Positions 2,853 to 53,951 of a stretch of 64,000 nucleotides of DNA are shown here, piece by piece. The stretch spans positions 4,269,104 to 4,333,103 of the forward strand of contig OY725492.1 in the NCBI GenBank assembly GCA_963281255.1. Direction: 5' to 3'. A model generated the notes under the pieces. The model saw only the letters and a program-made list of their open reading frames with translations. It had not been told where the DNA came from and did not search any database. Position numbers and translations under genes: made by a program. Source of the stretch: Aphrocallistes beatrix. Its lineage: Eukaryota; Porifera; Hexactinellida; Sceptrulophora; Aphrocallistidae. Position 1 is the stretch's first letter. Each line of letters begins with the position of its first letter.

Positions 2853-2957
2853 ACACGTAGTATGCACACTACAGAGCAGCTCTATCAATTATAACATTAA
2901 ATTGTGGAGAAGTTAGCCTAACACATCTTAGTTAGTAAAGTTATCCTAGAGAATGTT

Positions 2958-5765
2958 TCATTTGCTTCTTAATTTATTCACTTTTCTAGATTGTAAAAAT
3001 TCAGATTTTCGCTTCAACTTCTGAACTAAAGCTGACATCTCTAACTGTTCTCTACATTTCTTGTCTCTTTCATCGATTTCAGTTTTCTTATTTTTCTTAA
3101 AGCTAACTCCTTGGACGATGTCTGCCTCTCTCCTCCGCTTTCTCTCTTCGATTATTTCCTTCAAGTTCCGGCCCTGGTGGAACTGGGGGTCGGAAGGATC
3201 TGGCGCGTAAATGGGAGAGTCTAACAATCTCTTAAATCTGGAGTCTTTCAAATCTAACTTGAATTCATCTTCCTGAGGAGCTAGCTTTCCTTTCCTAGCC
3301 AACTTGCGTCTTTTCTTCTCAGAAAGTTGATTGTTCTTCCAGACTTCGCTCATATTGAAGTGTTTCTTGTCTCGAGTCTCAGTCTCTGAGTCTGACGCCA
3401 TCAACAGCTGTAGCTCTTCTCTCTCTTTCTGCTCTGACTCAGTCAGGGACGAGTTCTTCTTCTGTCTCGGCTTTCTTTTCTTTCCTGACAAAACAAACAG
3501 AATAATATATACAGTCGACTCTGCTTAATAGGGTCACTTTTGGCAGGACCGGAATAGCTCTTACACATAGAAGCTAATACAAAATATTTTAATAGGAATC
3601 TCCGCTTAATCGGGACAAAATGTCCTCTGACCGATGTGACCTATTAAGTCGACTGATACAAGGTAAATTACTACTAGTTTCAGGTGTATATTCAGAATGT
3701 AGTTTCATACATGGTATTGGAATTGAGGTACGACTAAATACATTAGCAGCACAGCACTAACCTCCCAACTCTGTGAACGCACTCTCGTACTTAGCCTCTT
3801 CTCCCTCTTCAGAGCTGCCCTCCTGAGTCTTGTCTTTATTTCTTTTCAGCTTTTTCTTTTCTTTCCGTTTCTTGACATACTCCTCCCACGGAGTTAGATC
3901 GAACTCTCCCTTCCCAGTCTTTCTATTGATGGCCTCTTCTAAGGGGGCCAGCTTGCCCGGTTCCCAAGTTATCTCCAGGTCTATCTCTTCCTTCTTCTCA
4001 CTAGCCTCTCTGCTCTCCAACTCTGTTAGCAGCGACCTAAACTTATCGATCGTCCGCTCCTCACTTTCCTCTCTTCCCTCTCCATCTGAATCTTCATCCG
4101 ATTCAGTCGCCGATGCGAGATAAGCCTACAAACACAGTTACAATCAATAGAGAGTAGTCTACACTCCTCCACCAAAGTATTTGTACATCCTAATTAACAG
4201 TAACATGACGGGAAATTAGCATTATGATCGTAATTTTTAAGATGGGAAATTAACATCATGATCATGGACCTAATTTTTCTTCTCCAGTTCTGAGTTAATG
4301 ATTTACGGTAGATTAATGACGTTTCTTAGTAAGAAGAAAACAATCAATCGTTTCTTTGAAAGCCCGCTAGGCGACTCTGTTAGTACGCAGTGTCCGCAAG
4401 TTTGTTCCAATACTGATACCTGGAAATCCAACTCTCTGATGTCAGCCTTGGAGAAGTTCTGGTTGAGTATCTTCTGTCTGGCGGGGTCTGTCTCGTCCCA
4501 GGTGAGCTGCACCTTGGTGTGCTGGAGAGCGGAGTTCTGGAAGGCGGCGGGGAGGTAGTCGGGGGGTAGGGTGTCCGGAGAAGCGACAGAAGCGGGAGCT
4601 GTGTCCTCGAACTGCATTTCGTCTGGCACCACTCTGACGTCTAGACGAGTCCCGCTCAGCTCGTACTCCGTCCCATCGCACAGCTGGTACAGATAGTCAG
4701 AGGTAGACGCACTGTCTGTTTCTATGGAGCAGTTAGGTAACAGATAAATGTCATAGTGTCACGTTGAAGCGATTAATTTAAATGATTTCGCTGAGTATTA
4801 TAATTAGTTGCAGAAAATTAGGAGCTGAAATGCTAGAATCTAATCTAAACAAACTTCATTATTTATCTAGGATCTGCAAATATTAGGAGATAAGTTATTA
4901 CACCAAATGCTTACAGTATAGGGTTAGACCATTGTCTGTAAGCTAGCTAGCAGATATGAAGCTTACCCACGATGGCGTAGTAGTAGAGGAGTCTGTTCAG
5001 TTGGTACTTGCGGAGTCTCTCAGTCTGTAGCGCCTCATTCTCATCTCCGTCCTCTCCCCCTAGCAGCTCCTCGGGACCCTCTGCGTCCTCAACTCGTATC
5101 CGCTCCCTCCCGTACTCGGAGGGGAATATCTTCACGGAGAGGATGCGTCCCTGGTCCGGGGCCAGGCTGGAGAAGAGGAGGAGGAGATCGTTCGCGGTCA
5201 CTCTGTCCCAGTCCATGTTACACACAGCTAGTCGTGACGTGGAGGTGTCTGTGGTCTCAGCTGATTGGTCCAACTCAGCCCATGCGTGTATCAGCTCCTC
5301 GCTCACGCCTCCAGACCCGAAGGTTGTGTCTAACAACAAAAATAATAACAACAACAACAACAACACAACAACAACAACAATAAATAACAACACTTGTGTA
5401 GTATTTATTTCTGAAGGAACGAACTAACCTTCCTCGTCTGTCTCGCTGTCACTGCTGGAGGACTCCGCCTGGACTTCTCCGCGGGAGCGACACACCAGCT
5501 CTGCCGCCGACACTCCCACCTCTGTGTCCTCGTCCTCGAGACGGTAGAACCGCCTCAGATCCTCGGACGCACTCCTCTCCACCGCCCGCCCCCTCTTGTC
5601 TGAGGTGTAGCTCAGCTGGAAACGCTCCTCTCTGAACATTCCTGAGAAACGATTGTCGATCTCGATCTTGCGGACTTGCCGTGGGACCCGTTTGAAGCGA
5701 GGATCAGATTTGGCGGAAGAGAACCTTTCATCGACAGAAGCCGCGTCCCGGCCCTTCCGAGACAT
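2958..5765 (-). CDS. ESF1: ESF1 homologue, pre-rRNA processing protein
   Basis: Five exons are inferred (5765-5429, 5329-4967, 4721-4420, 4125-3762, 3484-2958) and give about 630 residues with all phases agreeing. ESF1 is a nucleolar protein needed for 18S rRNA maturation in the small-subunit processome. The N terminus has the family block DPRFKRVPRQVRKIEIDNRF with SYTSDKRGRAV. Exon 2 carries KIFPSEYGRERIRVEDAEGP and LRKYQLNRLLYYYAIV, as in human ESF1. Exon 3 has VQLTWDETDPARQKILNQNF, and the last exon has the lysine-rich C terminus with SRFKRLLDSPIYAPDPSDPQ. Acidic and basic low-complexity stretches are typical. Intron 1 holds an AAC microsatellite, intron 3 a Helitron-like scrap and intron 4 a MITE. 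The product is slightly shorter than the human protein. Confidence 0.93.
3512..3655. mobile_element. Tigger/pogo-type MITE in ESF1 intron 4
   Basis: Inverted ends CAGTCGACTCTGCTTAATAG and CTATTAAGTCGACTG bound about 144 bp. TA precedes the left end; the right flank is AT, probably a mutated TA. The ends belong to the same family as 43686-43838. Confidence 0.7.
4352..4400. mobile_element. Fragment of Helitron-like 3' end
   Basis: CGCTAGGCGACTCTG followed by CAGTGTCCGCAAG resembles the GC-rich 3' block of the elements at 1247-1320 and 33327-33400. It lies in ESF1 intron 3 and is only a remnant. Confidence 0.4.
5332..5395. repeat. AAC-rich microsatellite in ESF1 intron 1
   Basis: Imperfect runs of AAC/AAT trinucleotides directly abut the 3' splice site of the 99-bp intron. 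Read on the gene strand this gives a GTT-rich pyrimidine-poor tract immediately before the acceptor. Confidence 0.85.
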
Positions 5766-14196: not shown

Positions 14197-15451
14197 CATT
14201 AAGATTAAAACTAAGAATACATAAAATGATATTTTATTAGAATAAAATTCACTGTTGTAATGATTTAGAATAAGCCCGTATTTGTTAAAAAATACTTATA
14301 GAGTACAATAAAACATATTATCTGTATTTGCTAGCCGACCTCTTTTGACAAATTGAGTTTTTAACCCTCACAGTACATGGAATGTTGAAATGAAAGTGAA
14401 AAGTTAATTGAAAATGAACTGAAAGTGAAAGTGAAAGTGGGGTCATTTCTATTTATACCTTTGACCCCAATGTCTTCTAAGGGTTTTAAGTGGTCCATCA
14501 TACTTTAACACAATTAAATAGCGACCAATTGTAAGGGAAATTACTCCCATAATTGAAATTGGCTATGCTATATAACTTTGGCAACTAAATTGTGTTCTTT
14601 TGGCAAAACATGAAATGTCATTATTTTGGCACACAAGATAGGATTTACAATGCAATTTGTAGAATAATATGACATTCTAACTAAAATAATGAAAATAATA
14701 TTTGATATTTCGCTTAGGGACTGAGCAATGTTAGAGGTATATAACATGAGCAACCTTTTAACCACTTTTGGGCATAGAATTTGCACTAATGTTTGATATT
14801 TTGAATAATTCATAATTCTTCATTTTCAATGAATTAGTCAACTTAGATATGATGTGAGTTGTAACAGGAGTAATCAACTATATCTTTGGGGATAGGCACT
14901 ATAATGTTATTCGCTCCACTGGGTTAGATTTCTCAAGGGGTAAAACCATTCCTTCAAGTGCATTTTGAAATGCTCATTTCATTCCACATACATGACTAAT
15001 ACGCATTCGTTTTGCACTTCGTAACTTTATAATTAATCCAATGCAATACTCAAATAAGTTGGCAGATTATCTAGTCTCCGAATTAAATTCCTCAATTGAT
15101 GAGTAAAATGATAATAATATCCAACAGCTTCTTACCGTGTGGACCAACTGTCCACTGTCATTTAACGAAATTAATGAGGACCTAAATCTAAATGTGAAAA
15201 TACGTATCTCTTCATATGGAGCATTTCCTTTTTACTCCTAATCTTAACGTTAAGATTTTCATTAATCTAGAATTCATTATTCGAATAATTCCCAAAGTCA
15301 TCATGAATTAATTAATTGATTGATAGCAACCATAAGATATGTAGGTATGTGACAGTGTTACACGTGCAACCTAGTGTGTTAGGAACCTAGCAAAACAGCT
15401 AAATACTAGGATCTTATACTATTCTCAAATAGCAAGTCCTACATCATTATC
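14197..15451. other. AT-rich intergenic
   Basis: Apart from the piggyBac-type MITE at 14365-14485, no gene or RNA was recognised. The part before 15452 must hold the promoter of the first exonuclease paralogue. Confidence 0.55.
14365..14485. mobile_element. piggyBac-type MITE, second copy
   Basis: TTAA followed by CCCTCACAGTACATGG opens the element, and CCAATGTCTTCTAAGGG followed by TTTTAA closes it. The core of GAAAGTGAAAGTG repeats and TTTATACCTTTGACCCCAA matches 731-846. Confidence 0.75.
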
Positions 15452-16411
15452 ATGGCAAGCAGACAGTCAAACTGCGCAAAAAAGCTCAAATTAGAAACGG
15501 ACACGTTGCTTCATGAAACCACTGCTACTTCAGAGGCCGGATTTATCGTTATCGACTTAGAGACTGATGGATTAATCAAAAAAAGTAAAAAAATATGCAC
15601 ATGGATCCCTCAGATATTACAGATTGGATTTGCTCCTTTAGAAAGACTTGCTAGTACCACTACAACAATCAGTTTCTACGTTGAACCAATGGACTCAGTA
15701 GCATTTCGCATGAATTTAAAGGGCACTCCTTTCTTACAAAAGTTCTATAGAAGCTACTCAGGAGGCTCGTACCTTGTCAAGCGAGAAGGAAAGTCAGATC
15801 AGGAGGTCCATGCCATCCCACTAATCACCTGCATCGACATACTCATTAGGTGGAAACAAGAACTCTACAAAGACAGACCAGTATACTTCATCGCACATAA
15901 TGCACTCAAATTCGACAAAATAGTATTGGAATATAATCTGAAAAAATTGAAGATGTTTCCCTCTTTTCAATCACAGATCAATTTCGCGGGATGGATAGAC
16001 TCTCTCTCAATCATAAGAGGCATACCAAATATCCTGCAAGTGCTGGGCTATCCCTACATGACTGAAGAAAGTAAGAAGTGGTTGATTTGGCAAGAAAGGC
16101 CATTCTCCCAAGGCAAATTAATTGAAGCTTTATCAAGGCGCTACGCTCAATTATCACTTTCTAAAAGTAGCCTTCAATGGCCGGTACTCCAACTGTCTTA
16201 CTTTCAAAGGACTGAGAAAGAGGAGAAATGGTTATTCTATTTCTCTCGTGACGACATGATACGTAACTGTAAAGATGTGCTGAAGGAACTAACCTTCCAC
16301 CAAGCGGGTGATGACGTCACCGGACTCGTATGCATCCTACACCAGCTTAATCTCTATCCTAAATTTAGAAACGCCCATTTTAAAAGGGATTACAACGTCA
16401 TAATTCCTTAA
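15452..16411 (+). CDS. DEDD-type 3'-5' exonuclease-like protein, paralogue 1
   Basis: An intronless 319-residue frame. FIVIDLETDGL (Asp35, Glu37) fits exonuclease motif I. VYFIAHNALKFDKIVLEYNL fits motif II with its Asp, and YFSRDDMIRNC fits a motif III with Tyr or His followed by Asp. These are the metal-binding acids of DnaQ/TREX-like nucleases, which remove nucleotides from 3' ends. The family is divergent and I cannot tie it to a named animal exonuclease. A Lys-rich N terminus precedes the fold; no signal peptide or membrane segment is visible. It is the first of three tandem copies about 1 kb apart, all on the plus strand. All three catalytic motifs look intact. Confidence 0.75.
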   Translation: MASRQSNCAKKLKLETDTLLHETTATSEAGFIVIDLETDGLIKKSKKICTWIPQILQIGFAPLERLASTTTTISFYVEPMDSVAFRMNLKGTPFLQKFYRSYSGGSYLVKREGKSDQEVHAIPLITCIDILIRWKQELYKDRPVYFIAHNALKFDKIVLEYNLKKLKMFPSFQSQINFAGWIDSLSIIRGIPNILQVLGYPYMTEESKKWLIWQERPFSQGKLIEALSRRYAQLSLSKSSLQWPVLQLSYFQRTEKEEKWLFYFSRDDMIRNCKDVLKELTFHQAGDDVTGLVCILHQLNLYPKFRNAHFKRDYNVIIP

Positions 16412-17389
16412 GAAAAGCTACTGCCTCAACAGAGCTGAGTGTTGAACTAAGAAGCAGCAGTGTAGTCTAGTATGTAATACTACCCAGTATTCTATGTAAT
16501 AGGTTCTTACCAATATGAGATATGAATTCAGTATGTACTGTAGATTATATATGCATGTGCCCTTAAAAGACAGTGATTGTAAATATCTTGATGAGTTATA
16601 AAGTGTAGTAACGTATGTTAAGAGAGTCAATATCTTACAAGATAATGTATAAGATATACAATCAAATTATGCTCAAAATACCGACAAATCGATAATGCAG
16701 TTAGTAACTCGAAGGGTCGCCTATAATAGGAGAGCTGCACTAGAAATTGCTTGTCATGGTTGAAATATTCGACAATTGTTATCTTGCAAAAGGCTCGTTC
16801 ATATCAATGAACCTATCAGTACAAATAACAAGCGATCAATACATATACGTACATGTTCCAAAATTCATGAAGATGTGTCAAATCAATATTTTGAATTGAT
16901 GTTTTCAATTGGTCACAATTGGTCATCATCATTATCACTTCTGTTCAGCTTCCAAATCAACGCCTGAGATGCTACGGTAATCAAGTTACGATGAAACAGT
17001 CATATCCACTTACGTCTCGGGATTAATTCGTATATTACAAGCGTGAATTGACGAAATAGGAGTGAGCAATAATTATTAAAATTATTCAAGATCAATAAAA
17101 TAATCATGATGAAGTCATACCATACAACCCCCGCATTGAAACCTCACTAATCCTTAGGCAGAAAATCTAATAAAAGTATAAATAAGTCCATTTGTAGTAA
17201 ATAATATGTACAAGCAGTATATCAATATATAAACAAGTAATGTTTACAATATGGAGACAGTAAATTTGGATCTAGCATGCTTTGTCATATCTGGTTAAAA
17301 TACATTTATGCTCTATCTTTTAATATAATGGAAGCTGGTTGATGGACAATACTACACATTAATCTGCTAATATTATTGATTAGATTTCC
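16412..17389. other. Intergenic between exonuclease paralogues 1 and 2
   Basis: AT-rich with no gene seen. A TATAAATAAG string lies at about 17177, about 210 bp before the next ATG. Confidence 0.5.
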
Positions 17390-18337
17390 ATGGCGAGTAA
17401 CGAGTCAAATTGTACAAAAAAGTCAAAATTAGACTCTGATCCCACGCGCATTAAAACCGATGACACTTTCGAACCAGGATTTATCGTGATAGACCTAGAA
17501 ACTGATGGATTGATCTCAAGAACCAAAATTAGTACAAAGATTCCACAAATATTACAGTTGGGATTCGCTGCTTTAGAAAAGCTCGCTCAGAAAGATAACA
17601 CAGTAAGTTTTTATGTTCAGCCAGTCGATCTCAAGGCATTGCAGACGAAATTGAAAACCTGTGAGTACTTGCAAAAATTCTACATTAGCTACTCAGAAGG
17701 CTCATACTTCATCAAAAGAGGAGGAGAGCTAGGTATCCGAATAGGCGCTATTCCTGTGTACGACTGCGTGAATAGATTCATAATGTGGAAGCAGGAACTC
17801 TACAAGGATAGACCAGTATACCTCATCGCACACAATGCACACAGATTCGACAAAACTGTCCTGGAGCATAACTTGAAACTACTGAAGTTGTTCGACCTTT
17901 TTCAATCACAAATGAATATCGCGGGATGGATCGACTCTCTCTTAGTCATACGTAGAATGCCGAATATCCTGAAAGTGCTAGGCTACCCTTGCGCAACAGA
18001 ATATGATAGCATTTTGCAAAATAGTCCCTTCGCACTCACCAACTTAGTGGAAGCCTTGTCAAGGAGATATGACGAATTGTTAAAATCTAACTGTAACCTC
18101 AAATGGCCAGTGTTGTGCTTGTCCCATCTTAAAAGGGATGAACAAGAGGAGAGATGGTTGCACCATTTCTCTCGTGACGTCATGGTATGTACTTGTAGAG
18201 TTCTATTACGGCAACTAACGTTCCATCAGTCAAGTGATGACGTCATGGGACTCGTATGCATCTTACACCAGCTCAATCTATATCCTAAATTCAGAAACGC
18301 CCATTATCTAAGGGATTATGACATTATTATTTCATAG
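17390..18337 (+). CDS. DEDD-type exonuclease-like protein, paralogue 2
   Basis: An intronless 315-residue frame, colinear with paralogue 1. Asp35 and Glu37 of motif I (FIVIDLETDGL) and the motif II Asp (AHNAHRFDKTVLEHNL) are kept, and LHHFSRDVM supplies the His and Asp of motif III. The conserved central block FAGWIDSL in the relatives reads IAGWIDSL here. The shared C-terminal block is LVCILHQLNLYPKFRNAHY. It is probably an active nuclease by motif content. Presence of three intact frames in a row suggests selection rather than decay. Confidence 0.75.
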   Translation: MASNESNCTKKSKLDSDPTRIKTDDTFEPGFIVIDLETDGLISRTKISTKIPQILQLGFAALEKLAQKDNTVSFYVQPVDLKALQTKLKTCEYLQKFYISYSEGSYFIKRGGELGIRIGAIPVYDCVNRFIMWKQELYKDRPVYLIAHNAHRFDKTVLEHNLKLLKLFDLFQSQMNIAGWIDSLLVIRRMPNILKVLGYPCATEYDSILQNSPFALTNLVEALSRRYDELLKSNCNLKWPVLCLSHLKRDEQEERWLHHFSRDVMVCTCRVLLRQLTFHQSSDDVMGLVCILHQLNLYPKFRNAHYLRDYDIIIS

Positions 18338-19334
18338 AATTTATGTTTTTAGAAATATTTGTATTTTATTTGAGCTATTAACCTTACTAACCAGATGTTA
18401 AGTTAAGGGATAGTAAGTCTGGTCAGATCATTGACCATAAACTGACTTTTGACAAATATGCATCGTTAAAAATAAATTAGAGAATGCTACATCTCTACAC
18501 TACAAAAGTTTCGCACTCATAATATTTGATAAAAATAGGAAAGTTAGATTCCACAGGATGCTGTGTAAGGACGGATAAATTGTTGTAACGGCTAGAAAAA
18601 AATCAAAAAACAGAGTATTCAATAAATGTCTGGTGTACTTCTATCATGGCCGCAGTTTCAAATAGAGGGATGGGAATATTCCCACAGAATGACCTCCAGC
18701 GTCCCTCTCCAAAAATATAAAGTATAAGAGCAACTATCTTATATTAGAGATAGTATTCATTCGATATTCTATTTGAAGTTCAAGCAAAAGTGACTCAATA
18801 ATATATGCAATAAAAGTACATTTGTGTGGCTTGGGGCGTATCTTGCAACGTTTGTAATGATATATATTGTAGTGGTGTGTGTGTGTGTGTGTGAATCTCA
18901 ACTCGTGTAGGTATATATGATAAATGGATAATGCCATATTTTCTAATAATTAAATAGTAAAATATATTTTTAAATGTTGTTTCTTTAAGAAAATACTCTC
19001 TCTCGTTCGTTAGGTTACTTCGTGTATAATGTGCAACGAAAATATCTTAGGACTCCGACGATGATTCATCGGAAATCTTAACATATTCCCGTTATACAGT
19101 CTAGTATGACAATGTTATGACAATATCTCACAGAAGTTTAATAAATAATATATGCGAAATAAAATTATTCTTGCATTATTCATTATGGTTATAAGTTCAT
19201 CAAGTACTCTGCAATAAGTAAATGCTAGGATGAAAGGATATCGAGTCAAAACATGCAGTCCGCTGTAAAGTTGATTATAAATAAAAGTATAGCCATTTCG
19301 ATTAGAATAAATACAGATATACTACGGATATTAG
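18338..19334. other. Intergenic between exonuclease paralogues 2 and 3
   Basis: AT-rich with a GT dinucleotide run at about 18875-18892. No gene was seen. Confidence 0.5.
19276..19287 (+). promoter_or_regulatory. TATA-like box of exonuclease paralogue 3
   Basis: TATAAATAAAAG lies 48 bp before the ATG at 19335, a reasonable distance for a short 5' UTR. Supported by sequence and spacing only. Confidence 0.4.
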
Positions 19335-20291
19335 ATGGCATTCGAAGGAGCACACCGTGCAAAGAAAAGCAGGCCAGAAACAGACACTGTACTCTCTAAA
19401 CCTGCAGCAAATTTAGAACCAGGGTTCATTGTTATCAACCTGGGGACGGATGGGTTGATCTCAAAGACATGGTTCGGCACACGGATCCCACAAATACTAC
19501 AAATCGGATTCGCTCCTTTAGATGAACTTGCTCAAAGCGCTAACACAGTTAGTTTCTACACCCAGCCAGTCGACTCAGAAGCATTTAATAGAAACTTAAA
19601 GAATAATACTTACTTGAATACGTTCTATAGCAGCTACTCAGAAGGTTCGTACGTTGTCAAGCAAGAAGGAATGCCAGATCACGAGGTAGATGCCGATCCT
19701 CTAATCGACTGTATAAATATACTCGTTAGGTGGAAGCAAAAGCTCTACAAAAACAGACCTGTATATCTCATCGCACATAATGCACTCAAATACGTTAAGG
19801 TAATCTTAAACTATCATTTGGAAGCATTGGACTTGTTCGACTCTTTTCGATTCCAAATGAATTTCGCTGGATGGATAGACTCTCTATTAATCATACGCGG
19901 TATGCCAGACATCCTAATAGTCCTGGGCTACCCTTTAATGACAGAATATGACAGGTGGAAGTTTATCCAGAAAGAATGGCCCTTTGCCCTCAAAAAATTA
20001 GTGAAAGCTTTATCAAAGCAATACGCTAAATCCTCAAAATCTGGAAGTAATCTCAAATGGCCAGTCTTCCGCTTGTCCTGCCTTGACAGGACAGAGAAGG
20101 AGAATGAATGGTTGCATCATTTCTCTCGTGACGTCATGATACATAATTGCAGAGATATGCTAAAAGAAATAATGCTCCATCGATCACATGGCAGAGTCAT
20201 GGCGCTGGTGTGTATCCTACAACAGCTTAATCTCTATCCGAAATTCAGAGAGGCTCATTTCGAGAGAGATTATGACGTAATAACTCCATAG
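19335..20291 (+). CDS. Exonuclease-like paralogue 3, predicted pseudoenzyme
   Basis: An intronless 318-residue frame colinear with paralogues 1 and 2. Motif I reads FIVINLGTDGL, so Asp35 is Asn and Glu37 is Gly. Motif II reads AHNALKYVKVILNYHL, so the catalytic Asp is Val. The motif III Asp (LHHFSRDVM) remains. With three of the four metal ligands gone, the protein should not cleave nucleic acid. The frame is nonetheless open to the same C-terminal block (LVCILQQLNLYPKFREAHFE). It may act as a nucleic-acid-binding or regulatory partner of its neighbours; that is inference. Alternatively it is an early pseudogene without stops yet. Confidence 0.75.
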   Translation: MAFEGAHRAKKSRPETDTVLSKPAANLEPGFIVINLGTDGLISKTWFGTRIPQILQIGFAPLDELAQSANTVSFYTQPVDSEAFNRNLKNNTYLNTFYSSYSEGSYVVKQEGMPDHEVDADPLIDCINILVRWKQKLYKNRPVYLIAHNALKYVKVILNYHLEALDLFDSFRFQMNFAGWIDSLLIIRGMPDILIVLGYPLMTEYDRWKFIQKEWPFALKKLVKALSKQYAKSSKSGSNLKWPVFRLSCLDRTEKENEWLHHFSRDVMIHNCRDMLKEIMLHRSHGRVMALVCILQQLNLYPKFREAHFERDYDVITP

Positions 20292-20605
20292 AGTAAGATA
20301 TAATTAGTTGTAGAACAAACTACTAAACACCCATATGTATATGTAGTAACAGTTTGTATACTGGGTAATGTGAATATATTTTGTTTGCTATTATTTGTTT
20401 TATTTTATTATTTTCGTTTCTTGTTTGGTTGATGGCGAAGTGGCAGATTTACTAAATAAAACCGCAAAATGATTCCACTCAACCAAACCTTGAAAAGACA
20501 AAAACATAGTTGAAGTAAGAGTATTCCAAAGGATAAATACAAACATATCAATAAACAATAGTCCAATGTAGGTTGTTAGGAAGACAAATACGTATTACTT
20601 CATCT
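20292..20605. other. Convergent intergenic gap
   Basis: This lies between the plus-strand exonuclease cluster and the minus-strand hypothetical gene. It is T-rich and then A-rich, with no gene seen. Confidence 0.5.
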
Positions 20606-21321
20606 TCATACGAAAGTTCCAAGTCTCTATAGAAAGAAAATATTCAGTTAAATTCAAACAGTTCAACCAATACGAAAATACAAATAAAACAACTAACTTT
20701 GCCTCGAGGCGGGTAATTCAAATCCGTTCTGCAATCATAGATGTGTTCATAAGAAATCTTCTCTCTCATCTTGCTCCCAGATTCAGGTCCGACGCCAGGA
20801 ACTAGATTGAACTGATAGACTAACCTAGCACTCAACTACCATTAACAGTTAATAAACTGATTTTTACGCATACCGATGCCTTGTGCAGGTTGCTGGGGTG
20901 TCCGATTTGGGCGATGTAACTTATTTTCACTGAAATTAGGAAAATCTCTTCTCTGAGTGGAATCATTGCTATATCTAGATCATTAGATAGATTAGTGAAT
21001 ATTATAATGAGAGATAGCATTAGTTAGCACCACCGACTTTGCCTGAGGGATTTCTTCCGAGACGACGTGAGATTTCAGTGAGACATTCTGAGCCACGAAC
21101 TGCTGTCTATGATCCACTCTATTCTGCTCGCCAACCAGGGAGCAGATTGGTTGGTTGAGGAAGCGAACATTCTGACAGAGAAAACCGAAATTGGAACTGT
21201 TTTGTTCCGTTTTCCCTAAACTAAGCGGGTCAGGTTGCGGAGTTGCGATTGGTTCGCGGCTGTGGGATGTCCTGGAGGTAGCACTTGTGGAGTCAGATCC
21301 GTTCGGAGTAGAGGGATCCAT
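20606..21321 (-). CDS. Small hypothetical multi-exon gene
   Basis: The first exon starts at 21321 (MDPSTPNGSDSTSATSRTSH) and stays open to about 21031. Downstream pieces KISYIAQIGHPSNLHKAS (about 20929-20874), FNLVPGVGPESGSKM... (20811-20698) and RLGTFV-stop (20626-20606) are bounded by good GT and AG signals. The phases of exons 2, 3 and 4 agree. The exon 1 to exon 2 junction does not agree in phase with the best splice sites, so that boundary is unresolved. The N terminus is Ser/Thr-rich. I do not recognise the family. It lies 194 bp after the NEK9-like stop on the same strand. Confidence 0.45.
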
Positions 21322-21515
21322 TGAAGTGAATCAGAAGCTAGAATTTATACAATTTGGCTAGATTTTCGTGGTAATCAGTACAACCATTCTACTCATTTTG
21401 TCATCAATGTTATAAAAGGTAATAATGCACGTAGAGTAGAAATACTTTGAAAAGTGTCAATACAAAAACAGTATTAAAATAAGGGGTTTAGTAAAAAATA
21501 AAATCAAGTTGTCCT

Positions 21516-24500
21516 TTACATTACACTGCAAATAGAACTTTTCCCTGGGTCTCCTTCTCCCACAGACCCCGAGGAGGAGGGAGGAGGGGTGGGAGACTCT
21601 GGTGCAGGGGAAACTCTGGAGTTCCTCGAACGCGAAGAAGTCTTATTATTTTTCGGAATCAGAAGATGCATACTTTCAATCACGCATTTAGCTCTTTCCA
21701 GCTCTGTCGTCAGCGACAATATAGAGTTAGTTTTCTCTAAATTATTCATTCTCTCTTTCTGCAGTTCCGATTGGAGAAAGATTATTTCCTGTTTCAGGTT
21801 CGACTCTTTTTGCTGATACTCGATTTTCAGTTGATTCACACTTCTTTCTCCATCAATTCTGATCTCATCAGTCTTCTTCAAGGCGTCCAGGAGATCTCTC
21901 TCCGATTGGAACAGCTGTTTCTCTAACTCGAGCATCTGCAAGGTTTGCTTACTCGTAACAGTTCTCAATTGATCTTCTAAGTCCAAGCTACGCTTCTTAA
22001 GATTTCTATTTTCTTCTTTCAATTTCCGGAGGTCTCCGGGTATAGATTTCTTTCTTTGCTTATTTGGTTGTTCAGAATGATTCAGTCTCGGTTCAGAATC
22101 GTCAGATTGCCTAGCAGGCGGTTTGAGATCTGAAATATTCTCTTTACTCGCAAACTCCTCGCTAGTTCGAGGAGAACCTCCTCTCTCATCGTGGGCAGGC
22201 AAATTTGTAGGAAACGACTTTTCAAAAGACTGTCTTGTGACAATTCCAATCAGATGTTCTCGACTCTGAGCTACCATATGCTTGCTCTTGGCAGCGCCAT
22301 CTCTAGAACTGGAATGGTTTTTACTTTCAATCCCAATGTATGGGTTGTGTCCATCACATGGCTTATCTGGGACTGGCTGGTAGCTTGGTTTTCGTGTGAG
22401 AATGTTGATTGATTCTATAAAATGCTTGCTATTAACTGCATCGTTGAGAATGGGAAGAGAAGACTTTGCAGAGGCGTCTCTCTGTAGTGCAATATTATCG
22501 GTTGAAACATTAGGTTCAACTGTGCCTCGGACTAAATTCGGATTCCAAATATGACTGGAATCCGCGACAACATCAGCAAATAAGCCATCCATAGCGACAT
22601 CATCAGTGGAAAGAGACGCTCCATCTTTCCTTGGCTCTTGGAAGGAAATGGGTACGGCTTTAGGAATGCCTTTGGTGTTGGTTTTAGGAATTATTTTATT
22701 ACTCCTTTTTTCTGATGAAACGACTCGTGATGAGGTGGACGGTCTGCCGTGCCTAGGCCAGCCTATAATGCGCCGAATGTTCTCATTGACCTGACCCTCC
22801 CCCACAGAGTGCTTGGAAACCGGAAACAGATCAGATCCACTCTCAATCGATAGAATGACGTTACTCCCGAAACATGAAATCTGTTTGATTAGGAATTCAG
22901 AAGCGTTCAGCTCGCGTCCCTCTGATAAGATCGGAACTTTGGTGAGAGGATAAATTATTCGACTATCCATGAATCCCCCTTTTCTGCGGTTTTTATCTGG
23001 TTCAGCATCTAGATACATCTGTTTCAAGCAGTCCTTCAAAAGATCCAAATAATTCAGTTTAGTGTTTGGATCTTGAAAGAGATCTAAGATACTCATGCAG
23101 GACTCGCCAGACTGTGAAAGTTTCTTAATTCCTTTCAACAGCTCCCGAGATTGTGAGACATGAGATATGTTGGAGCCGATACTCATCACGAGTGGAGGAG
23201 GGATGGACTCGAACCGTCCCTCGCCTTGCAATTCTAAATGCTTCTCCAGAGGGAGCTGGAACATTTGCCGAGACCCAATAACCTGCAATGTCTGGTCTTC
23301 ACGCCCTACGATGGTCATCAGTTCGCTGCAAGCCACCAGACTGCCACCAGTCGACAGAATACACGACACCTCTCTATCTTCTCCCTCAGCCCCCTTGGAC
23401 TTCTCAATGCCTCTCTGCCCCTCCTTCTTCCGTCCGAAGGCCAGTACCTTCCCATTGTCCACTAAAACAGCTGAATGGGTAGGGCCAAGTGAGACATCTA
23501 GAACCATGTGCTTACTGAGTGTCTTCACAGTGATTGGCTCCAGACTTCGCTCTACCTGCATTTTCTGTTCCTTCGTGAATAACCGCATCGTCATCAACAT
23601 GGTGGGTTTCTTGTTCAGGCCTAGTTTGTTGTTGCGGTTGCTGCCACAGGCATATAAGGTGTGAGAAGTGGTTAGGAACATGGTGCCATCCAGTCCACAT
23701 ACCACCTGCTTGATATGCTCCTTCACATTATCCGCGGACATGACTACTATCTCCTTAGGGACTAACTGATTGTGATCACTCCCGGTCCCCAGACGGCCGT
23801 CCTTGCCCAGCCCCCATCCGTACACCTCCCCTTCTGACGTCACCCCCATCGCGTGGAGCTCTCCACAGGACACCTGCACCATTTGGCACCCAACCAGGGC
23901 ATCAATGATAGTGGGCACGTTTATATCTGAGTCTGTTTTCTTCCCTAGACAATACTGACTATAAGAACCGCATACTAATGTGATGCCTGTGTCGTTAAGG
24001 AAAAGTGTGAAGTCTTTGCCACACTGTATGTTAATGATGGTGGTTTCACTCCCTATACTCGTAATCGGCTGCGGTTGGAAACAGGACCCTGCAATCCCGT
24101 GTCCCAACTGCCCCCTAGTTCCGGAGCCCCAGGTGAACACCTGTTTCTCTAGCGTCGTGAGACCCATGTGACTAAAACCGACCGAAACCTGGTCGACTTT
24201 GATCCCCTCAGGCATGAGAATAGGCTCAGCGGTCAGTTTGGAGCCGCTAAACTTGTACAGGTATGTCTTGGTATTGGCTCGGTTCGCTTCAGTTTGGCTT
24301 TTCTCGTGCAGGTCGTCCAGCAGCTGGGGTAACAGCTGCTGTGCAATCTGCGTGCTCGCCGGTCGTTTATCCGGATCTTTCTGTAGCATGGACAGAGCTA
24401 AGTTCTTCAAACCTTCGCTGTAGTCACCCTTTATAGGCACAAATGTCCCATCAACAATCTTCTTGATCAGGGCGGGGAAATTAGTCCCATCAAACGGTTT

Positions 24501-25700
24501 CTGCAGCTCTGCCATTTCGTGGAGAATACACCCTAGCGACCAGATGTCACTCTTGGAATTGTAAGGATTCCCCTCGCATATTTCAGGGGAGATATAGTAG
24601 GGAGTTCCCAGGACTGTCTGAGCGTACTGCTCGGTGGAACCCATTACTTTCGAAATCCCGAAATCGCCCAACTTCACTGTCTCCTCGCGTGTCAGGAATA
24701 TATTGGCCGTCTTCAGATCTCGATGCAGTATCTTCCTACTGTGGATATAGCGGACAGCCTGAGACATCTGGTGGAACATGTACAAGATCTGGTACTCGGG
24801 AATAGGTGTGTCTCTTTTTTGAATGTATTGTGCTAGCGTCCCTCCATCCGCATACTCCATCTCTATAATGAGCATCCCGTCCTCTCCGTAGAAGTTATCG
24901 TAGTAGGTGATGATGTTAGGATGCTCTAGCATACTCAGTATGCTCACTTCAGACCGAACCAACTCCTTCTCATTCTCCTGTAACTCACTCATGGATATCT
25001 CCTTCAGAACGACGAACATGTTGTCTCCTTTACGGCGGTACAGCACAGCCGCCCCGAAGCTACCTCGTCCCACTGTGCGGATTTTCTCAAACATCTCCAA
25101 GCTTGGCTGCTCGAGACCCTTCCAATCATTCAGTTTGTTGCTATCGAAGTAGAAGAAGCAGATTGGCATTGAAATGTCGCCGCTTTTGTTTGAAAAATTG
25201 AGTTCAGGACCGTAGAAGCTACTCGAAGAGTACACCTCCACGTTTAGGATATTTTCAAGCAGCTTCAGCAGTTGGATTCCCTCCATAGACTCAGCTATCG
25301 GAGATCCTAAGATGTCCAGACGTTTCTGCTCGTTGCGCGGGTCCATATTGTCTGTGACTAAATTAACAAAGAAAGAACGGACCTCTCCAGATTTGATCGA
25401 CTCTAGATTCAACTCCTTCTGAGTGCAGAGGTGCATTACCCCCTTACGTCCCGGACAGATTAAAGCGATGCTCGCAGCCTTTTTACCGTTAAGTGCTTGG
25501 GTCACCATACCTAAGATCATGTCGAGACTTCTTGACTCGTGCTTGTACAGGACAGGGACTACCACGTTAGAGTGTGTCATTTCAGTCAGGTTCTGCGAGA
25601 AACGAACTCGATTGGAGATTATGACGAGGAGAGGAGAAGATTCGGTGCCGAGCACTTGGTTCAGCTGATCCTGATGTGAGATTGAGAACTTGTTATCCAT
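21516..25700 (-). CDS. NEK9: NEK9-like kinase with N-terminal DUF4347-like module
   Basis: A single 1394-residue frame with no intron. Residues about 20-175 fit the DUF4347 pattern: LLVIISNRV, then a [20 protein letters not shown] stretch, [15 protein letters not shown] and a LLKLLENI...VEVYSSS end. Residues about 205-465 are a protein kinase with [43 protein letters not shown] and [13 protein letters not shown], all as in NEK8/NEK9. Next comes an RCC1 propeller (about 500-800) with [15 protein letters not shown] and [16 protein letters not shown] disordered region and a coiled coil (about 1200-1310) close the protein. NEK9 acts in spindle and centrosome maturation. The start gives an extension of about 200 residues absent from vertebrate NEK9. 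The stop of CLASRP lies 161 bp upstream. Confidence 0.88.
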
Positions 25701-28800: not shown

Positions 28801-31800
28801 TGCCTGTTAGACATAAATATTGAAGAATTAGAAATGAACAGTTCAAATGATTAGAAAATGTTAGTAACAAACATAAATATAATCTGAGAAAATATTTAAG
28901 ACGTTGGACGTCATGGCCGAGTGGTTAGCGCACTGAGTCAATAACAGAGTGGTGCGGGTTCGAATCCCAGAATAGTCAACAAATTTCTGCATTTCAAAGT
29001 AACAAACATAAATGCAGTTTAGGAAAATATTTAAGACGTTGGACGTCATGGCCGAGTGGTTAGCGCACTGAGTCAATAAAAGAGTGGCGCAGGTTCGAAT
29101 CCCAGGAATAGTCAAAAAATTTCAGCATTTCAAAGTAACAAAGATAAATGCAGTTTAGGGAAATATTTAAGACGTTGGACGTCATAGCCGAGTGGTTAGC
29201 GCACTGAGTCAATAAAAGAGTGGCGCAGGTTCGAATCCCAGGAATAGTCAACAAATTTCAGCATTTCAAAGTAACAAAGATAAATGCAGTTTAGGAAAAT
29301 ATTTAAGACGTTGGACGTCATGGCCGAGTTGTTAGCGCACTGAGTCAATAAAAGAGTGGCGCAGGTTCGAATCCCAGAATAGTCAACAAATTTCTGCATT
29401 TCAAAGTAACAAAGATAAATGCAGTTTAGGGAAATATTTAAGACGTTGGACGTCATGGCCGAGTGGTTAGCGCACTGAGTCAATAACAGAGTGGCGCAGG
29501 TTCGAATCCCAGGAATAGTCAACAAATTTCAGCATTTCAAAGTAACAAAGATAAATGCAGTTTAGGAAAATATTTAAGACGTTGGACGTCATGGCCGAGT
29601 TGTTAGCGCACTGAGTCAATAAAAGAGTGGCGCAGGTTCGAATCCCAGAATAGTCAACAAATTTCTGCATTTCAAAGTAACAAAGATAAATGCAGTTTAG
29701 GAAAATATTTAAGACGTTGGACGTCATGGCCGAGTTGTTAGCGCACTGAGTCAATAAAAGAGTGGCGCAGGTTCGAATCCCAGAATAGTCAACAAATTTC
29801 TGCATTTCAAAGTAACAAAGATAAATGCAGTTTAGGGAAATATTTAAGACGTTGGACGTCATGGCCGAGTGGTTAGCGCACTGAGTCAATAAAAGAGTGG
29901 CGCAGGTTCGAATCCCAGAATAGTCAACAAATTTCTGCATTTCAAAGTAACAAAGATAAATGCGGTTTAGGAAAATATTTAAGACGTTGGACGTCATGGC
30001 CGAGTGGTTAGCGCACTGAGTCAATAAAAGAGTGGCGCAGGTTCGAATCCCAGAATAGTCAATAATTTTCAGCATTTCAAAGTAACAAACATAAATAAAA
30101 TTAAGACGTTGGACGTTATAGTCAATAATACCATATAAACATGATGAGAAAAAATGAACCGTGAAAAGAAACGATCAAAAATCAAAGAGTTTAGTGTAGT
30201 GAGGGTTGAGAAACACTCCCGAAATAGATTTACAAAAAAATGGGATAAAGGGTTTAAAATAGTAGAAAAGATTAAAAGGTAGCGAAAGGAAACAACGAGC
30301 AAAAAATTTAAAATCGAATATCCATAGATAAAAGAATTGAAGAGGAAAGCAAGCATATTCAGGGAATGAAAAGCGCAACAAAAATACAGTAAAGAAAACA
30401 AAATCAAAGATTGGAAGAGAGAAAAAATGTCATTAGAAAAATAAAGTCAGAACAGAAACAAAAAACAATGGGCAAAATAAAACTAAAACAATGGTTTAAT
30501 AGAACAAAGAATGAATTAACATGAAAAGCAAGGTAATTCGAAAATTGCATCCCAAAATGCCCACGTCAAAATAATGCCAAATTACCCCCCCCGTAGGGGG
30601 CTGAGGACATTCGAAAATAGTATCCTAAAATGCCCGCGTATAAATAATGCCAAATTACCCCCCCCGTAGGGGGCTGAAGACATTCGAAAATAGTATCCTA
30701 AATGCCCGCGTCTAAATAATGCCAAATTACCCCCCCCCGTGGGGGCTGAGGACATTCGAAAATAGTATCCTAAAATGCCCGCGTATAAATAATGCCAAAT
30801 TACCCCCCCCCCCGTAGGGGGAGAAGGACATTCGAAAATAGTATCCTAAAACGCCCGCGTCTAAATAATGCCAAATTACCCCCCCCCGTAGGGGGCTGAG
30901 GACATTCGAAAATAGTATCCTAAAATGCCCGCGTCTAAATAATGCCAAATTACCCCCCCCCGTAGGGGGCTGAAGACATTCGAAAATAGTATCCTAAAAT
31001 GCCCGCGTCAAACAATGCCAAATTACCCCCCCCCCGTAGAGGGCAGAGGACATTCGAAAATAGTATCCTAAATGCCCGCGTCTAAATAATGCCAAATTAC
31101 CCCCCCCGTAGGGGGCTGAAGACATTCGAAAATAGTATCCTAAAATGCCCGCGTCTAAATAATGCCAAATTACCCCCCCGTAGGGGGCTGAAGACATTCG
31201 AAAATAGTATCCTAAAATGCCCGCGTCTAAATAATGCCAAATTAGCCCCCCCCCCCGTAGAGGGCAGAGGACATTCGAAAATAGTATCCTAAAATGCCCG
31301 CGTCTAAATAATGCCAAATTACCCCCCCCGTAGGGGGCTGAAGACATTCGAAAATAGTATCCTAAAATGCCCGCGTCTAAATAATGCCAAATTACCCCCC
31401 CGTAGGGGGCTGAAGACATTCGAAAATAGTATCCTAAAATGCCCGCGTCTAAATAATGCCAAATTAGCCCCCCCCCCCCCGTAGAGGGCAGAGGACATTC
31501 GAAAATAGTATCCTAAAATGCCCGCGTCTAAATAATGCCAAATTAACCCCCCAGTAGGGGGGGGAGGACATTCGAAAATAGTATCCTAAAACGCCCGCGT
31601 CTAAATAATGCCAAATTACCCCCCCGTAGGGGGCTGAAGACATTCGAAAATAGTATCCTAAAATGCCCGCGTCTAAATAATGCCAAATTAGCCCCCCCCC
31701 CCGTAGAGGGCAGAGGACATTCGAAAATAGTATCCTAAAATGCCCGCGTCTAAATAATGCCAAATTACCCCCCCCGTAGGGGGCTGAAGACATTCGAAAA

Positions 31801-34800
31801 TAGTATCCTAAAATGCCCGCGTCTAAATAATGCCAAATTACCCCCCCGTAGGGGGCTGAAGACATTCGAAAATAGTATCCTAAAATGCCCGCGTCTAAAT
31901 AATGCCAAATTAGCCCCCCCCCCCCGTAGAGGGCAGAGGACATTCGAAAATAGTATCCTAAAATGCCCGCGTCTAAATAATGCCAAATTAACCCCCCAGT
32001 AGGGGGGGGAGGACATTCGAAAATAGTATCCTAAAACGCCCGCGTCTAAATAATGCCAAATTACCCCCCCCCGTAGGGGGAGAAGGACATTCGAAAATAG
32101 TATCCTAAAACGCCCGCGTCTAAATAATGCCAAATTACCCCCCCCGTAGGGGGCTGAGGACATTCGAAAATAGTATCCTAAAATGCCCGCGTCTAAATAA
32201 TGCCAAATTACCCCCCCCCCCCCCCCAGTAGGGGGGGGAGGACATTCGAAAATGGAAAACAATTTTTCACACCTTTTCTATACTAAATAAAATCACAATG
32301 GAAATTACTGTACGACACTCCATTAGATCGTCATTATTAATAATACTCCAAAGCTACAACTTATGTTTAATATCTTAAATGTATTATAGTGTATAGCAAT
32401 TAAAAAAAATTATGTGCATATTTTCACACCATTTGATGAATTTTGAAAATAATGCTAGAGACTAGCTTCCAACGGTTGACATGGGGTTTTCAGGGGTGTA
32501 GATTTCGAATATCATATTTTCAGATGTATATGATAAATTATTTGTTTACTTTTGTTTACAATAGATACATAAAGTAAACAAATCTCAAAAATAGGCTAGA
32601 AACTAGCTTCCAACGGTTGACATGGGGTTTTTAGGGGTGTAGATTCCGAATATCATATTTTCAGATCGATATGATAAATTATTTGTTTGCTTTTGTTTAC
32701 AATAGATACATAAAGTAAACAAATCTCAAAAATATGCTAGAAACTAGCTTCCAACGGTTGACATGGGGTTTTTAGGGATGCAGATTTTGAATATCATATT
32801 TTCAGATGTATATGATAAATTATTTGTTTACTTTTGTTTACAATAGATACATAAAGTAAACAAATCTCAAAAATAGGCTAGAAACTAGCTTCCAACGGTT
32901 GACATGGGGTTTTTAGGGGTGTAGATTCCGAATATCATATTTTCAGATCGATATGATAAATTATTTGTTTGCTTTTGTTTACAATAGATACATAAAGTAA
33001 ACAAATCTCAAGAATATGCTAGAAACTAGCTTCCAACGGTTGACATGGGGTTTTTAGGGATGCAGATTTTGAATATCATATTTTCAGATTGATATGATAA
33101 AATATTTGTTTACTTTTGTTTGCAATAGATACATAAAGTAAACAAATTACAAAAATATGCTAGAAACTAGCTTCCAACGGTTGACATGGGGTTTTTAGGG
33201 GTGTAGATTTCGAATATCATATTTTCGGATCCATATGAAAAATTATTCGTTGACCTTTGTTTACAATATATATATATATATATATAAAGGAAAAAAATTC
33301 AAAATAGTTTAGATTGAGTAAAACCAGGCGCCCGCAGGGCGACTCTGCGGACACAAAGTGTCCGCAAGCCGCGCAGCTCAAGCAAGCGAAGCGCGCTTGT
33401 AGTATCCTAAAATGCCCGCGTCTAAATAATGCCAAATTGGGGATAATAATGCCACAATCCTTCATATCCACATATATTCAATCAAATGTCACGTCCAAAT
33501 AATGCCATTCGGAGGAATAATGCCACAATCCCTCATATCCACATATATTCAATCATAATCTACTATATCATACTACCGACACAATTTTCCTAGTGCAACA
33601 CTTTTTAAATACAGTACTAGTAACCACCTGGGTCGTCTGGAATGTGAATAATGCCTGATGTTTGACGGAGACCTAGATCGAGATCGGCTAGAAGAACTGT
33701 GTTTTCTCTCACGTCTCCGATGAGAGTGCCGATATCTATCTCTGCACAAGCCTGCTGATAAAATATGTAGTAGCTACTAGTATAATTAGTTGAATGACTA
33801 GCTGAGTACCGAGATCTAGATCTAGATCTAGAGCGAGATATTCTGTGTCTCGAGGAGTGAGAGTGAGATCTCGAGCGCGAGCGATGGAGACGCAGCCTCT
33901 TCGTACGGTGTCTGGATTTGTTCCTCTCTTTACTTTGCGGGTGAGACATGGTACCGAACTCTGTGATGTACTCTATGTTCCCCGGTTCTTCCTCTGAAGA
34001 GCTGGCAGATCGGTCTCTGTAGGGTAGAGAGTAGGTGGGACTCTGCCGACATGCGAAACTAAAAATAGTTAGAATGAAATAAGAGGAATAAATTAAAATC
34101 TTAAACCTTGTCTATGACAAACTAGGCTAACCTCAGAGGAGAATTTCTACTGAATACACGCTCGGGCTGTTTGGATTTCGCTCCCAACTTGTTCGCTCTC
34201 CGTTCTCTCCTCGTACCCACTTTACTCTAGAACACAGGAGAACTAATTCTATTGAACGAGCTGGGCCAAGAGGGACAGTAGTCTGCCTACCTTTTGAATC
34301 GCTTTTTGCTTTTCTAAATACAAATCTTCCTTTGCCTGTTTTTGCTCCAAGGCGTCATTCTTCACGTAACTAAGAGCAACAAGATAATGATAGAGCATAC
34401 ACCGTGTGTTATTGGATGGTAGGATTACCTGGTGAAGCGACCCGGACATATTCCATACTCATTCCCAATACCATTGAGCGTGTCGATCTAACAGAATGAA
34501 GATAAACAGCAGTGGGATTCCTAGAGCCAAAGCTCTGATCATTCATTTTTATTTGTATCTTCTAGGCGATACCCAATTCGAACCCGAAAATTAGAACTTT
34601 TTCCTGTCATTTTTGGAAATGAGATTACTGACATATCAAAGGTAATGCTATGGCATAGATATATGGGATAGTACCTGCTTTCGATCCAATTCATTCAAAT
34701 TAAGATTGCTTCCTAAATAAAATAACATTGGTCAAAACGGTAAAAATGTGGTCATCGAATCCAAGAGAGAGATTCACCAATGTCGCTCAGTTGATCGTCA

Positions 34801-53571: not shown

Positions 53572-53951
53572 GGGGCCTTATTCACTAAGAAAACTTAAGA
53601 TTTGCTTAACTTTTGAATATTCAAAATTAGAAGAGATTTTTAAAGAATTCAAATAGATTGATTACTCTATTAATTTTAAGTGGTACAATTGAAATGCTTG
53701 ACAAATTTTGACTCATTTGTTAAACTTTTCAGAAAGTTACGTAATATTTTAAGTTAAGTATGACGTCATAATACTTAAGTATGACATCACGAATATTTCG
53801 AGAGTGACTTGGAATATTTCCAGTATTTAGGTAGTTTATATTTCTATTGGTATCATTGAACATCTATTTACCCAAATCGTAATGCAACTCTTCAAAATTT
53901 CCACTATACAAAGTTAAGCAAAACTTAAGTTTTCTTAGTGAATAAGGCCCC
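53572..53951. mobile_element. 380-bp MITE in the GTPase coding sequence
   Basis: Ends GGGGCCTTATTCACTAAGAA and TTCTTAGTGAATAAGGCCCC are perfect inverted repeats, extended by AAACTTAAG. CTGG occurs on both coding flanks. The ends resemble PIF/Harbinger-type MITEs, but the target duplication does not settle the family. Confidence 0.8.

What the first reader, a model, noticed from the sequence alone, without database searches (positions are those of the whole stretch)
15452..20291. Tandem trio of DEDD-type exonucleases with a catalytically dead but open third member
Seen: three colinear intronless genes of 315-319 codons, 1 kb apart. Copies 1 and 2 keep Asp35/Glu37 and the motif II Asp. Copy 3 has Asn35/Gly37 and Val in their place, yet its frame and C-terminal block are intact. 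Family knowledge: loss of these metal ligands abolishes DnaQ/TREX-type catalysis. Inference: the third copy may bind nucleic acid or regulate its active neighbours, a layout seen in enzyme/pseudoenzyme pairs. The family does not look like a standard TREX or ERI1, so the locus may be a little-known nucleic-acid processing or defence cluster.
Basis: partly seen in the sequence, partly recalled or inferred. Interest (0 to 1): 0.75.

Follow-up and report, generated by a model that had tools for sequence, protein, structure and literature searches.

The report
Sponge exonuclease trio, one inactive
A glass sponge carries a small family of DNA/RNA-trimming enzymes related to fish Plex9 and human PML, and one of three neighbouring copies has lost its four metal-holding residues while the rest of the protein is still preserved, so it is probably a working binding protein and not a dead gene.

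Summary
Confirmed, and stronger than stated. Three colinear intronless ORFs (319, 315, 318 aa) lie at the given places; the genome search shows three more relatives. Motif III is H-x4-D. Five of six members keep D-E-D-D-h; copy 3 lost all four acids (N-G-V-R) and keeps the His. Of 55 positions identical in the other five, copy 3 differs at 4 of 4 ligands but 3 of 51 others. Its branch omega is 0.49; omega=1 is rejected (p 0.005-0.007), and relaxation is borderline. One neutral clock explains the pattern with probability at most 4.6e-5. A six-member profile matches four PDB chains at E<=10, all named exodeoxyribonuclease III (best 5.5e-6), one being zebrafish Plex9.1; no TREX1 or ERI1. Mitochondrial traits point to a glass sponge. 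Best explanation: a PLEX-like exonuclease family with copy 3 a selected nucleic-acid-binding pseudonuclease, as reported for human PML-I and Drosophila Exu. Binding, regulation of neighbours and defence are inference. AlphaFold failed (pLDDT 32-33); no expression, population or orthologue data.

The parts
15452..16411 (+). Copy 1: PLEX-like DEDDh exonuclease, 319 aa, D35/E37 - D155 - H283/D288 intact
   Evidence: ORF; alignment; codons; PDB match of the trio profile
17390..18337 (+). Copy 2: PLEX-like DEDDh exonuclease, 315 aa, all five catalytic residues intact
   Evidence: ORF; alignment; codons; phmmer to PDB 9l8b E 1.7e-5; sub-threshold RNase_T E 0.11
19335..20291 (+). Copy 3: pseudo-exonuclease, 318 aa, D-E-D-D replaced by N-G-V-R, His kept
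   Evidence: ORF; codons; phmmer to PDB 9l8b E 0.0053; selection
16412..17389 (.). Spacer 1 (978 nt); the 700-nt stretches tested show no similarity to the corresponding flanks of the other copies
18338..19334 (.). Spacer 2 (997 nt); the 700-nt stretches tested show no similarity to the corresponding flanks of the other copies

Best explanation
The locus is the tandem part of a PLEX-like DEDDh 3'-5' exonuclease family (six members found) in a glass sponge. Copies 1 and 2, and three members on other chromosomes, keep the two-metal active site, so they most likely trim DNA or RNA ends as Plex9 and TREX1 do (inferred). Copy 3 lost all four metal ligands but is kept by selection. It most likely still holds a nucleic-acid strand in the same groove without cutting it, and so acts as a binding protein (carrier, sensor or decoy), possibly pairing with or competing against its active sisters. 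Shown: ORFs, sequence family, loss of the four ligands, retention of most other conserved positions, omega below 1. Inferred: fold, nucleic-acid binding, physiological role.
For: ORFs and alignment. Profile of six members against PDB: 4 of 4 sequences at E<=10 are named exodeoxyribonuclease III, best 9l8b 5.5e-6, 9mrc 0.0063; 9MRC is zebrafish Plex9.1 in PMC12934764 (passages). Copy 3 differs at 4 of 4 ligand positions but at 3 of 51 other positions identical in the other five members, Fisher p 1.0e-4; copies 1, 2, L005 and L008 differ at 1/49, 3/51, 4/52 and 5/53. Branch omega 0.49-0.50, omega=1 rejected p 0.005-0.007 on the three best of 15 topologies. Joint probability of 4/4 ligands lost and at most 3/51 others changed under one neutral clock is at most 4.6e-5 over the seven times tried. 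Simulated neutral frame without stop: 44 of 1000 at 0.05 and 0 of 1000 at 0.17 substitutions per site. Precedent: PML-I PXL and Exu, reported pseudonucleases of this fold that bind RNA or ssDNA (PMC12934764).
Against: No RNA-seq, second individual or orthologue: expression and persistence of copy 3 are untested. AlphaFold2 gave no usable model for copy 3 or copy 2 (pLDDT 33.3 and 32.4), so the fold rests on sequence similarity over the motif II region. Omega of copy 3 is the highest of the five tip branches; its excess over one ratio is p 0.043-0.060 uncorrected, 0.10-0.13 with ligands masked. A tip branch averages time before and after the loss. Net charge of copy 3 (+5) is within the range of the others (-9 to +30), so no gain of a basic surface is seen.
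Confidence: 0.62

Rival explanations
1. Copy 3 is a pseudogene that lost its active site recently and has not yet acquired a stop.
For: Highest omega of the five tip branches (0.49 against background 0.29-0.30); of its three other changes at conserved positions, F154Y adjoins motif II and T281M lies two residues before the motif III His; no expression data.
Against: The four ligand codons differ from copy 1 by seven nucleotides in all, which takes time unless selected, yet 48 of 51 other conserved positions are kept. One-clock decay reaches at most 4.6e-5. omega=1 is rejected.
Confidence: 0.15
2. Copy 3 is a dedicated regulatory subunit: it forms a mixed dimer with copy 1 or 2 and tunes or targets their cutting.
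For: Tandem neighbours at 1 kb; TREX1 is a homodimer (passage in PMC12206365). If this family dimerises, the interface could be what selection keeps.
Against: No interface could be examined. Tandem position is the default after local duplication. Flanks share no detectable sequence that would suggest shared control.
Confidence: 0.15
3. Copy 3 keeps some catalysis with substitute ligands or a different chemistry.
For: His283 is retained and a polar residue (N35) remains.
Against: Val and Arg at the motif II and III positions cannot hold metal by the established two-metal chemistry; PML-I PXL, with one of four acids, showed no activity (PMC12934764).
Confidence: 0.03

Closest known systems
Plex9 (PML-like exon 9) exonucleases of fish, PDB 9MRC
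   Same: DEDDh motif set and profile similarity over the motif II region (9mrc E 0.0063). 9MRC is zebrafish Plex9.1 (PMC12934764 passage). The better-scoring 9L8B, and 9L85 and 9MRD, are named only exodeoxyribonuclease III; that they are of the Plex9 type is my inference from the aligned segments.
   Different: Host is a glass sponge. Proteins are 283 to about 370 aa against 189-196 aa chains. The five members other than L009 have 45-49 more residues between motifs II and III than L009. One copy lacks the active site.
PXL domain of human PML-I
   Same: Pseudonuclease of the DEDD fold that lost its ligands (one of four kept) and binds G-rich ssRNA/ssDNA (PMC12934764).
   Different: Part of a large TRIM protein with a SAM-like subdomain; copy 3 is a stand-alone protein beside active sisters and lost four of four acids. 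No PML chain was among the PDB matches.
Drosophila Exuperantia (Exu)
   Same: RNA-binding pseudonuclease of the same fold (PMC12934764 passages); L009 has a sub-threshold Exu_RNase_H_like match, E 0.12.
   Different: Exu has a SAM-like domain. No significant sequence match here; PF22123 finds nothing in the genome at E<=10, though that search also missed L009 and is therefore weak.
TREX1
   Same: DEDDh order of motifs; likely chemistry (recalled).
   Different: No TREX1 chain among PDB matches at E<=10. Three other genes of this genome match Pfam RNase_T (L001-L003); they were not identified further.

Membership tests
PLEX / Plex9-type DEDDh exonuclease | Sequence similarity to Plex9 chains above other DEDD families | tested here: met
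   Four chains at E<=10, all named exodeoxyribonuclease III: 9l8b 5.5e-6, 9l85 0.0018, 9mrd 0.0027, 9mrc (Plex9.1) 0.0063. The match covers the motif II region, not the whole length.
PLEX / Plex9-type DEDDh exonuclease | D-x-E, D and H-x4-D catalytic set | tested here: met
   Met by 5 of 6 members; copy 3 has 0 of 4 acids, His kept
PLEX / Plex9-type DEDDh exonuclease | DnaQ-like fold | tested here: inconclusive
   AlphaFold2 on three-sequence alignments, pLDDT 33.3 and 32.4; no fold search was run on them
PLEX / Plex9-type DEDDh exonuclease | 3'-5' exonuclease activity | not testable with these tools
   needs purified protein
Pseudoenzyme (copy 3) | Loss of catalytic residues | tested here: met
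   N-G-V-R at D-E-D-D
Pseudoenzyme (copy 3) | Maintenance by selection after the loss | tested here: met
   omega=1 rejected on its branch, p 0.005-0.007; 48 of 51 other conserved positions kept; one-clock decay at most 4.6e-5. Indirect: one genome only.
Pseudoenzyme (copy 3) | Expressed protein with a non-catalytic function | not testable with these tools
   no RNA-seq or proteomics held
TREX1/TREX2 | Sequence match to TREX | tested here: not met
   no TREX chain at E<=10
ERI1 / RNase_T (PF00929) | Pfam RNase_T above cut-off | tested here: not met
   copy 2 only, E 0.11, 13.5 bits against 24; no RNase_T match in the other five members
Exuperantia | Pfam Exu_RNase_H_like above cut-off | tested here: not met
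   L009 E 0.12, 13.3 bits against 27; none in the other five

The most novel reading that the evidence does not exclude
The exonuclease family behind vertebrate PML exon 9 is old enough to be in sponges, was expanded in glass sponges, and there independently gave rise to a dedicated nucleic-acid-binding pseudonuclease beside its active sisters. It would be a third route, after PML-I and Exu, by which this fold traded cutting for binding.
Probability: 0.4. Interest if true: 0.62.

Novelty: new variant of a known kind. Interest (0 to 1): 0.5.

Why it matters
Human PML-I carries a dead exonuclease domain that binds G-rich RNA/DNA (PMC12934764), while spotted gar PML is reported to have exonuclease activity (passage in PMC11602975). 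A sponge with active-looking and dead sisters side by side would let one test what such a fold does once cutting is lost, with controls from the same genome. It also suggests that this family, studied so far in jawed vertebrates (title of Mathavarajah et al. 2023, seen only in reference lists), has relatives near the base of animals.

Tried and rejected
Rejected: 'copy 1 is also dead'. I first took the block HHFSRD as motif III, where copy 1 has FYFSRD. With L009 in the alignment, motif III is the later H-x4-D block, intact in copy 1. Rejected: standard TREX or ERI1. Close viral or prokaryotic relatives: one scan of viral contigs (31 stretches matched a pattern) and one of genome contigs (24) gave 0 confirmed relatives; such scans reach relatives that keep the patterns only. 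Led nowhere: AlphaFold2 on copy 3 and copy 2 with three-row alignments, so no fold search was run. Flanks, 700 nt up and 700 nt down of five members: 0 of 20 pairs exceeded the best of 100 shuffles, so neither shared promoter nor duplication boundary is visible. Codon counts are not used, because several of my mitochondrial frames held stops; only base composition is used. Pfam scores with tables 5 and 13 were mostly lower than with table 4 (the cytochrome b C-terminal domain was higher with table 5); these tables also change ATA, so the clean contrast is. ARAGORN found no tRNA in the window.
Full report
OBSERVATION. The three ORFs are present exactly as described: 15452-16411 (319 aa), 17390-18337 (315 aa), 19335-20291 (318 aa), all + strand, ATG to stop, no intron needed. 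They are 57-61% identical over their full length. In a repeat search of 14200-21500 the three long repeat families (D1-D3) lie within the ORFs at spacings of 1926-1954 nt; the other five direct families are short two-copy matches.

THE FAMILY IN THE GENOME. The assembly has 100.5 Mb in 28 contigs. Copy 1 used as query finds six places: the three copies, L005 on C13 (59%), L008 on C7 (54%) and L009 on C1 (42% over the matched part). L009 used as query returns the same six. These searches score only the best candidates, so six is a lower bound. Each member is one open frame. L009 has 86 residues between the starts of motifs II and III, the others 131-135.

ACTIVE SITE. With L009 in the alignment the three motifs are D-L-E-T-D-G, H-N-A-x-x-F-D and H-x4-D. 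At the four acids and the His, copies 1, 2, L005, L008 and L009 have D, E, D, D and H. Copy 3 has AAC (N), GGG (G), GTT (V), AGA (R), with His CAT kept. These four codons differ from copy 1 by seven nucleotides in all.

WHAT FAMILY. Pfam gives nothing above cut-off. Copy 2 has RNase_T at E 0.11, L009 has Exu_RNase_H_like at E 0.12, and the other four members have no match at E<=10. Against PDB chains, a profile of the trio matches 9l8b (1.6e-5), 9mrd, 9mrc and 9l85. A profile of all six matches the same four and nothing else at E<=10: 9l8b 5.5e-6, 9l85 0.0018, 9mrd 0.0027, 9mrc 0.0063. Single queries against 9l8b: copy 2 1.7e-5, copy 3 0.0053 and its only match, L009 1.6e-4. Of L009's 14 rows, 4 are these chains, 8 are LysR-type regulators (E 0.031-0.039), 1 is DnaQ (0.55) and 1 is NDUFB7 (1.4); I take the LysR rows for chance, as no single stretch of them passes the threshold. 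The four chains are named exodeoxyribonuclease III. PMC12934764 (part 1 of 5 and passages seen) identifies 9MRC as the zebrafish 3'-5' exonuclease Plex9.1; that 9L8B, the best match, is of the same type is my inference from the aligned segments. The significant stretch is the motif II region. One search also shows a chain segment FDLETTGL resembling motif I, and a chain segment HDATEDV resembling motif III. I read both off by eye; neither scored. No TREX1 or ERI1 chain appears. I conclude a PLEX-like family by sequence. The fold was not confirmed: AlphaFold2 with three-row alignments gave pLDDT 33.3 (copy 3) and 32.4 (copy 2).

HOST. COX1 lies on a 17,996-base contig, C28, with 11 in-frame TGA in the match. 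The contig encodes an ATP synthase subunit c (E 3.4e-12). Reading AGA/AGG as Ser instead of Arg raises the Pfam score from 496.8 to 505.2 for cox1, and from 220.7 to 224.3 and 109.4 to 114.5 for the two main cytochrome b domains. Base composition is A+T 71.3%, AT skew 0.173, GC skew -0.289. PMC2267718 (passages seen) gives 70.7%, 0.18 and -0.28 for the glass sponge Aphrocallistes vastus, and names atp9 retention and AGR reassignment to serine as hexactinellid traits; the reassignment is not seen in demosponges. The host is therefore most likely a hexactinellid. The species is not identified.

SELECTION ON COPY 3. Pairwise NG86: copy 1-copy 3 dN 0.275, dS 0.951; copy 2-copy 3 0.302, 1.277; copy 1-copy 2 0.271, 1.102. 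A home-written GY94-type codon model on 300 columns and five members (L009 left out as too diverged) ranked 15 topologies. The best three all pair copies 1 and 3; the best without that pair is 5.0 log-likelihood units worse. The place of L005 and copy 2 is unresolved. On those three topologies the copy 3 branch has omega 0.496, 0.487 and 0.488 against background 0.293, 0.298 and 0.299. omega=1 is rejected (p 0.0072, 0.0055, 0.0060). The difference from one ratio is borderline (p 0.043, 0.059, 0.060), uncorrected for five branches tested. With the four ligand columns masked, omega is 0.456-0.465, p against neutrality 0.003-0.004, p against one ratio 0.10-0.13. Copies 1, 2 and L005 have 0.42, 0.35-0.36 and 0.43-0.46. 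L008 is the outlier (0.14-0.15 on a long, near-saturated branch, p about 1e-5) and pulls the background down; without it the background is 0.40-0.41. A tip branch averages time before and after the loss, so this alone does not prove selection after it.

INTERNAL CLOCK. At 55 positions identical in the other five members, copy 3 differs at 7: 4 of 4 ligands and 3 of 51 others (Fisher p 1.0e-4). The same left-out-one count for the others: copy 1 1/49, copy 2 3/51, L005 4/52, L008 5/53, L009 31/79. Without L009: copy 3 13/110 besides 4/4 (Fisher p 3.6e-4), against 10/107, 10/107, 15/112 and 24/121. Under one neutral clock the joint probability of losing all four ligands and at most three others is 5.8e-6, 4.6e-5, 1.4e-5 and 7.8e-7 at 0.02, 0.05, 0.10 and 0.17 substitutions per site; at 0.25, 0.33 and 0.5 no run of 20,000 kept the others. 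Neutral simulations keep an open frame in 161, 44, 5, 0 and 0 of 1000 runs at 0.03, 0.05, 0.09, 0.17 and 0.33 substitutions per site without indels, and 10, 1, 0, 0 and 0 with indels at an assumed 10% of substitutions. The active site was freed while the rest stayed constrained. This is the signature of a pseudoenzyme; a uniformly decaying gene would not show it.

FLANKS. 700 nt up- and 700 nt downstream of five members show no pair (0 of 20) above the best of 100 shuffles. The coding stretches, at 67-71% DNA identity within the closest four, stand alone. Either the flanks were not copied or they have decayed while the ORFs have not.

MECHANISM. Established knowledge (recalled, and stated in PMC12934764): DEDD enzymes hold metal ions with four acids, often with a His or Tyr. 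Reported there: PML-I PXL with one of four acids is inactive but binds UG-repeat RNA and G-rich ssDNA, and Exu is an RNA-binding pseudonuclease. Inference: copies 1 and 2 trim nucleic-acid ends; copy 3 binds without cutting. A role against retroelements is taken only from vertebrate relatives (title of Mathavarajah et al. 2023, NAR 51:3185, seen in reference lists; the paper itself is not held). Nothing in the window proves it. The window also holds a URGCP-type GTPase gene, about 34 kb away, of a family recalled as interferon-inducible in vertebrates; I draw no conclusion.

NOVELTY. Of eight paper searches, three named sponges or invertebrates. By titles and abstract starts, none listed a paper on PLEX-like exonucleases in sponges. 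Two lists were capped (20 of 99, 10 of 48) and the library lacks most subscription papers, so this is weak evidence of absence. I rate it a new variant of a known kind.

Noticed in passing
28863-30096: Tandem array of about 9 copies of a 135-base unit that holds a tRNA-like stretch (A and B box-like words, recognised by eye); ARAGORN calls no tRNA in the window. Possibly a tRNA-derived satellite.
   Followed up: partly
30536-32218: Tandem array with a 73-base unit, about 23 copies, holding runs of C.
   Followed up: no
937-1214 and 32446-33276: Two arrays with similar 141-base consensus units about 31 kb apart (similarity by eye).
   Followed up: no
53935-56670 (-): URGCP-type large GTPase gene (URGCP_GTPase E 1.6e-120, URGCP E 1.1e-51). 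ORFs downstream of it at 46709-48064 and 49844-51118 (-) have no Pfam match; whether they belong to the same gene is open.
   Followed up: partly
21516-25700 (-): Single open frame of 1394 aa: protein kinase plus RCC1 repeats (NEK8/NEK9-like layout, recalled) with an N-terminal DUF4347 match (E 3.4e-8), so long intronless frames are not special to the trio here.
   Followed up: no
L008:680-1327 and 2757-3407 (+): Beside the C7 relative lie two open frames of 216 and 217 aa that look related to each other by eye.
   Followed up: no
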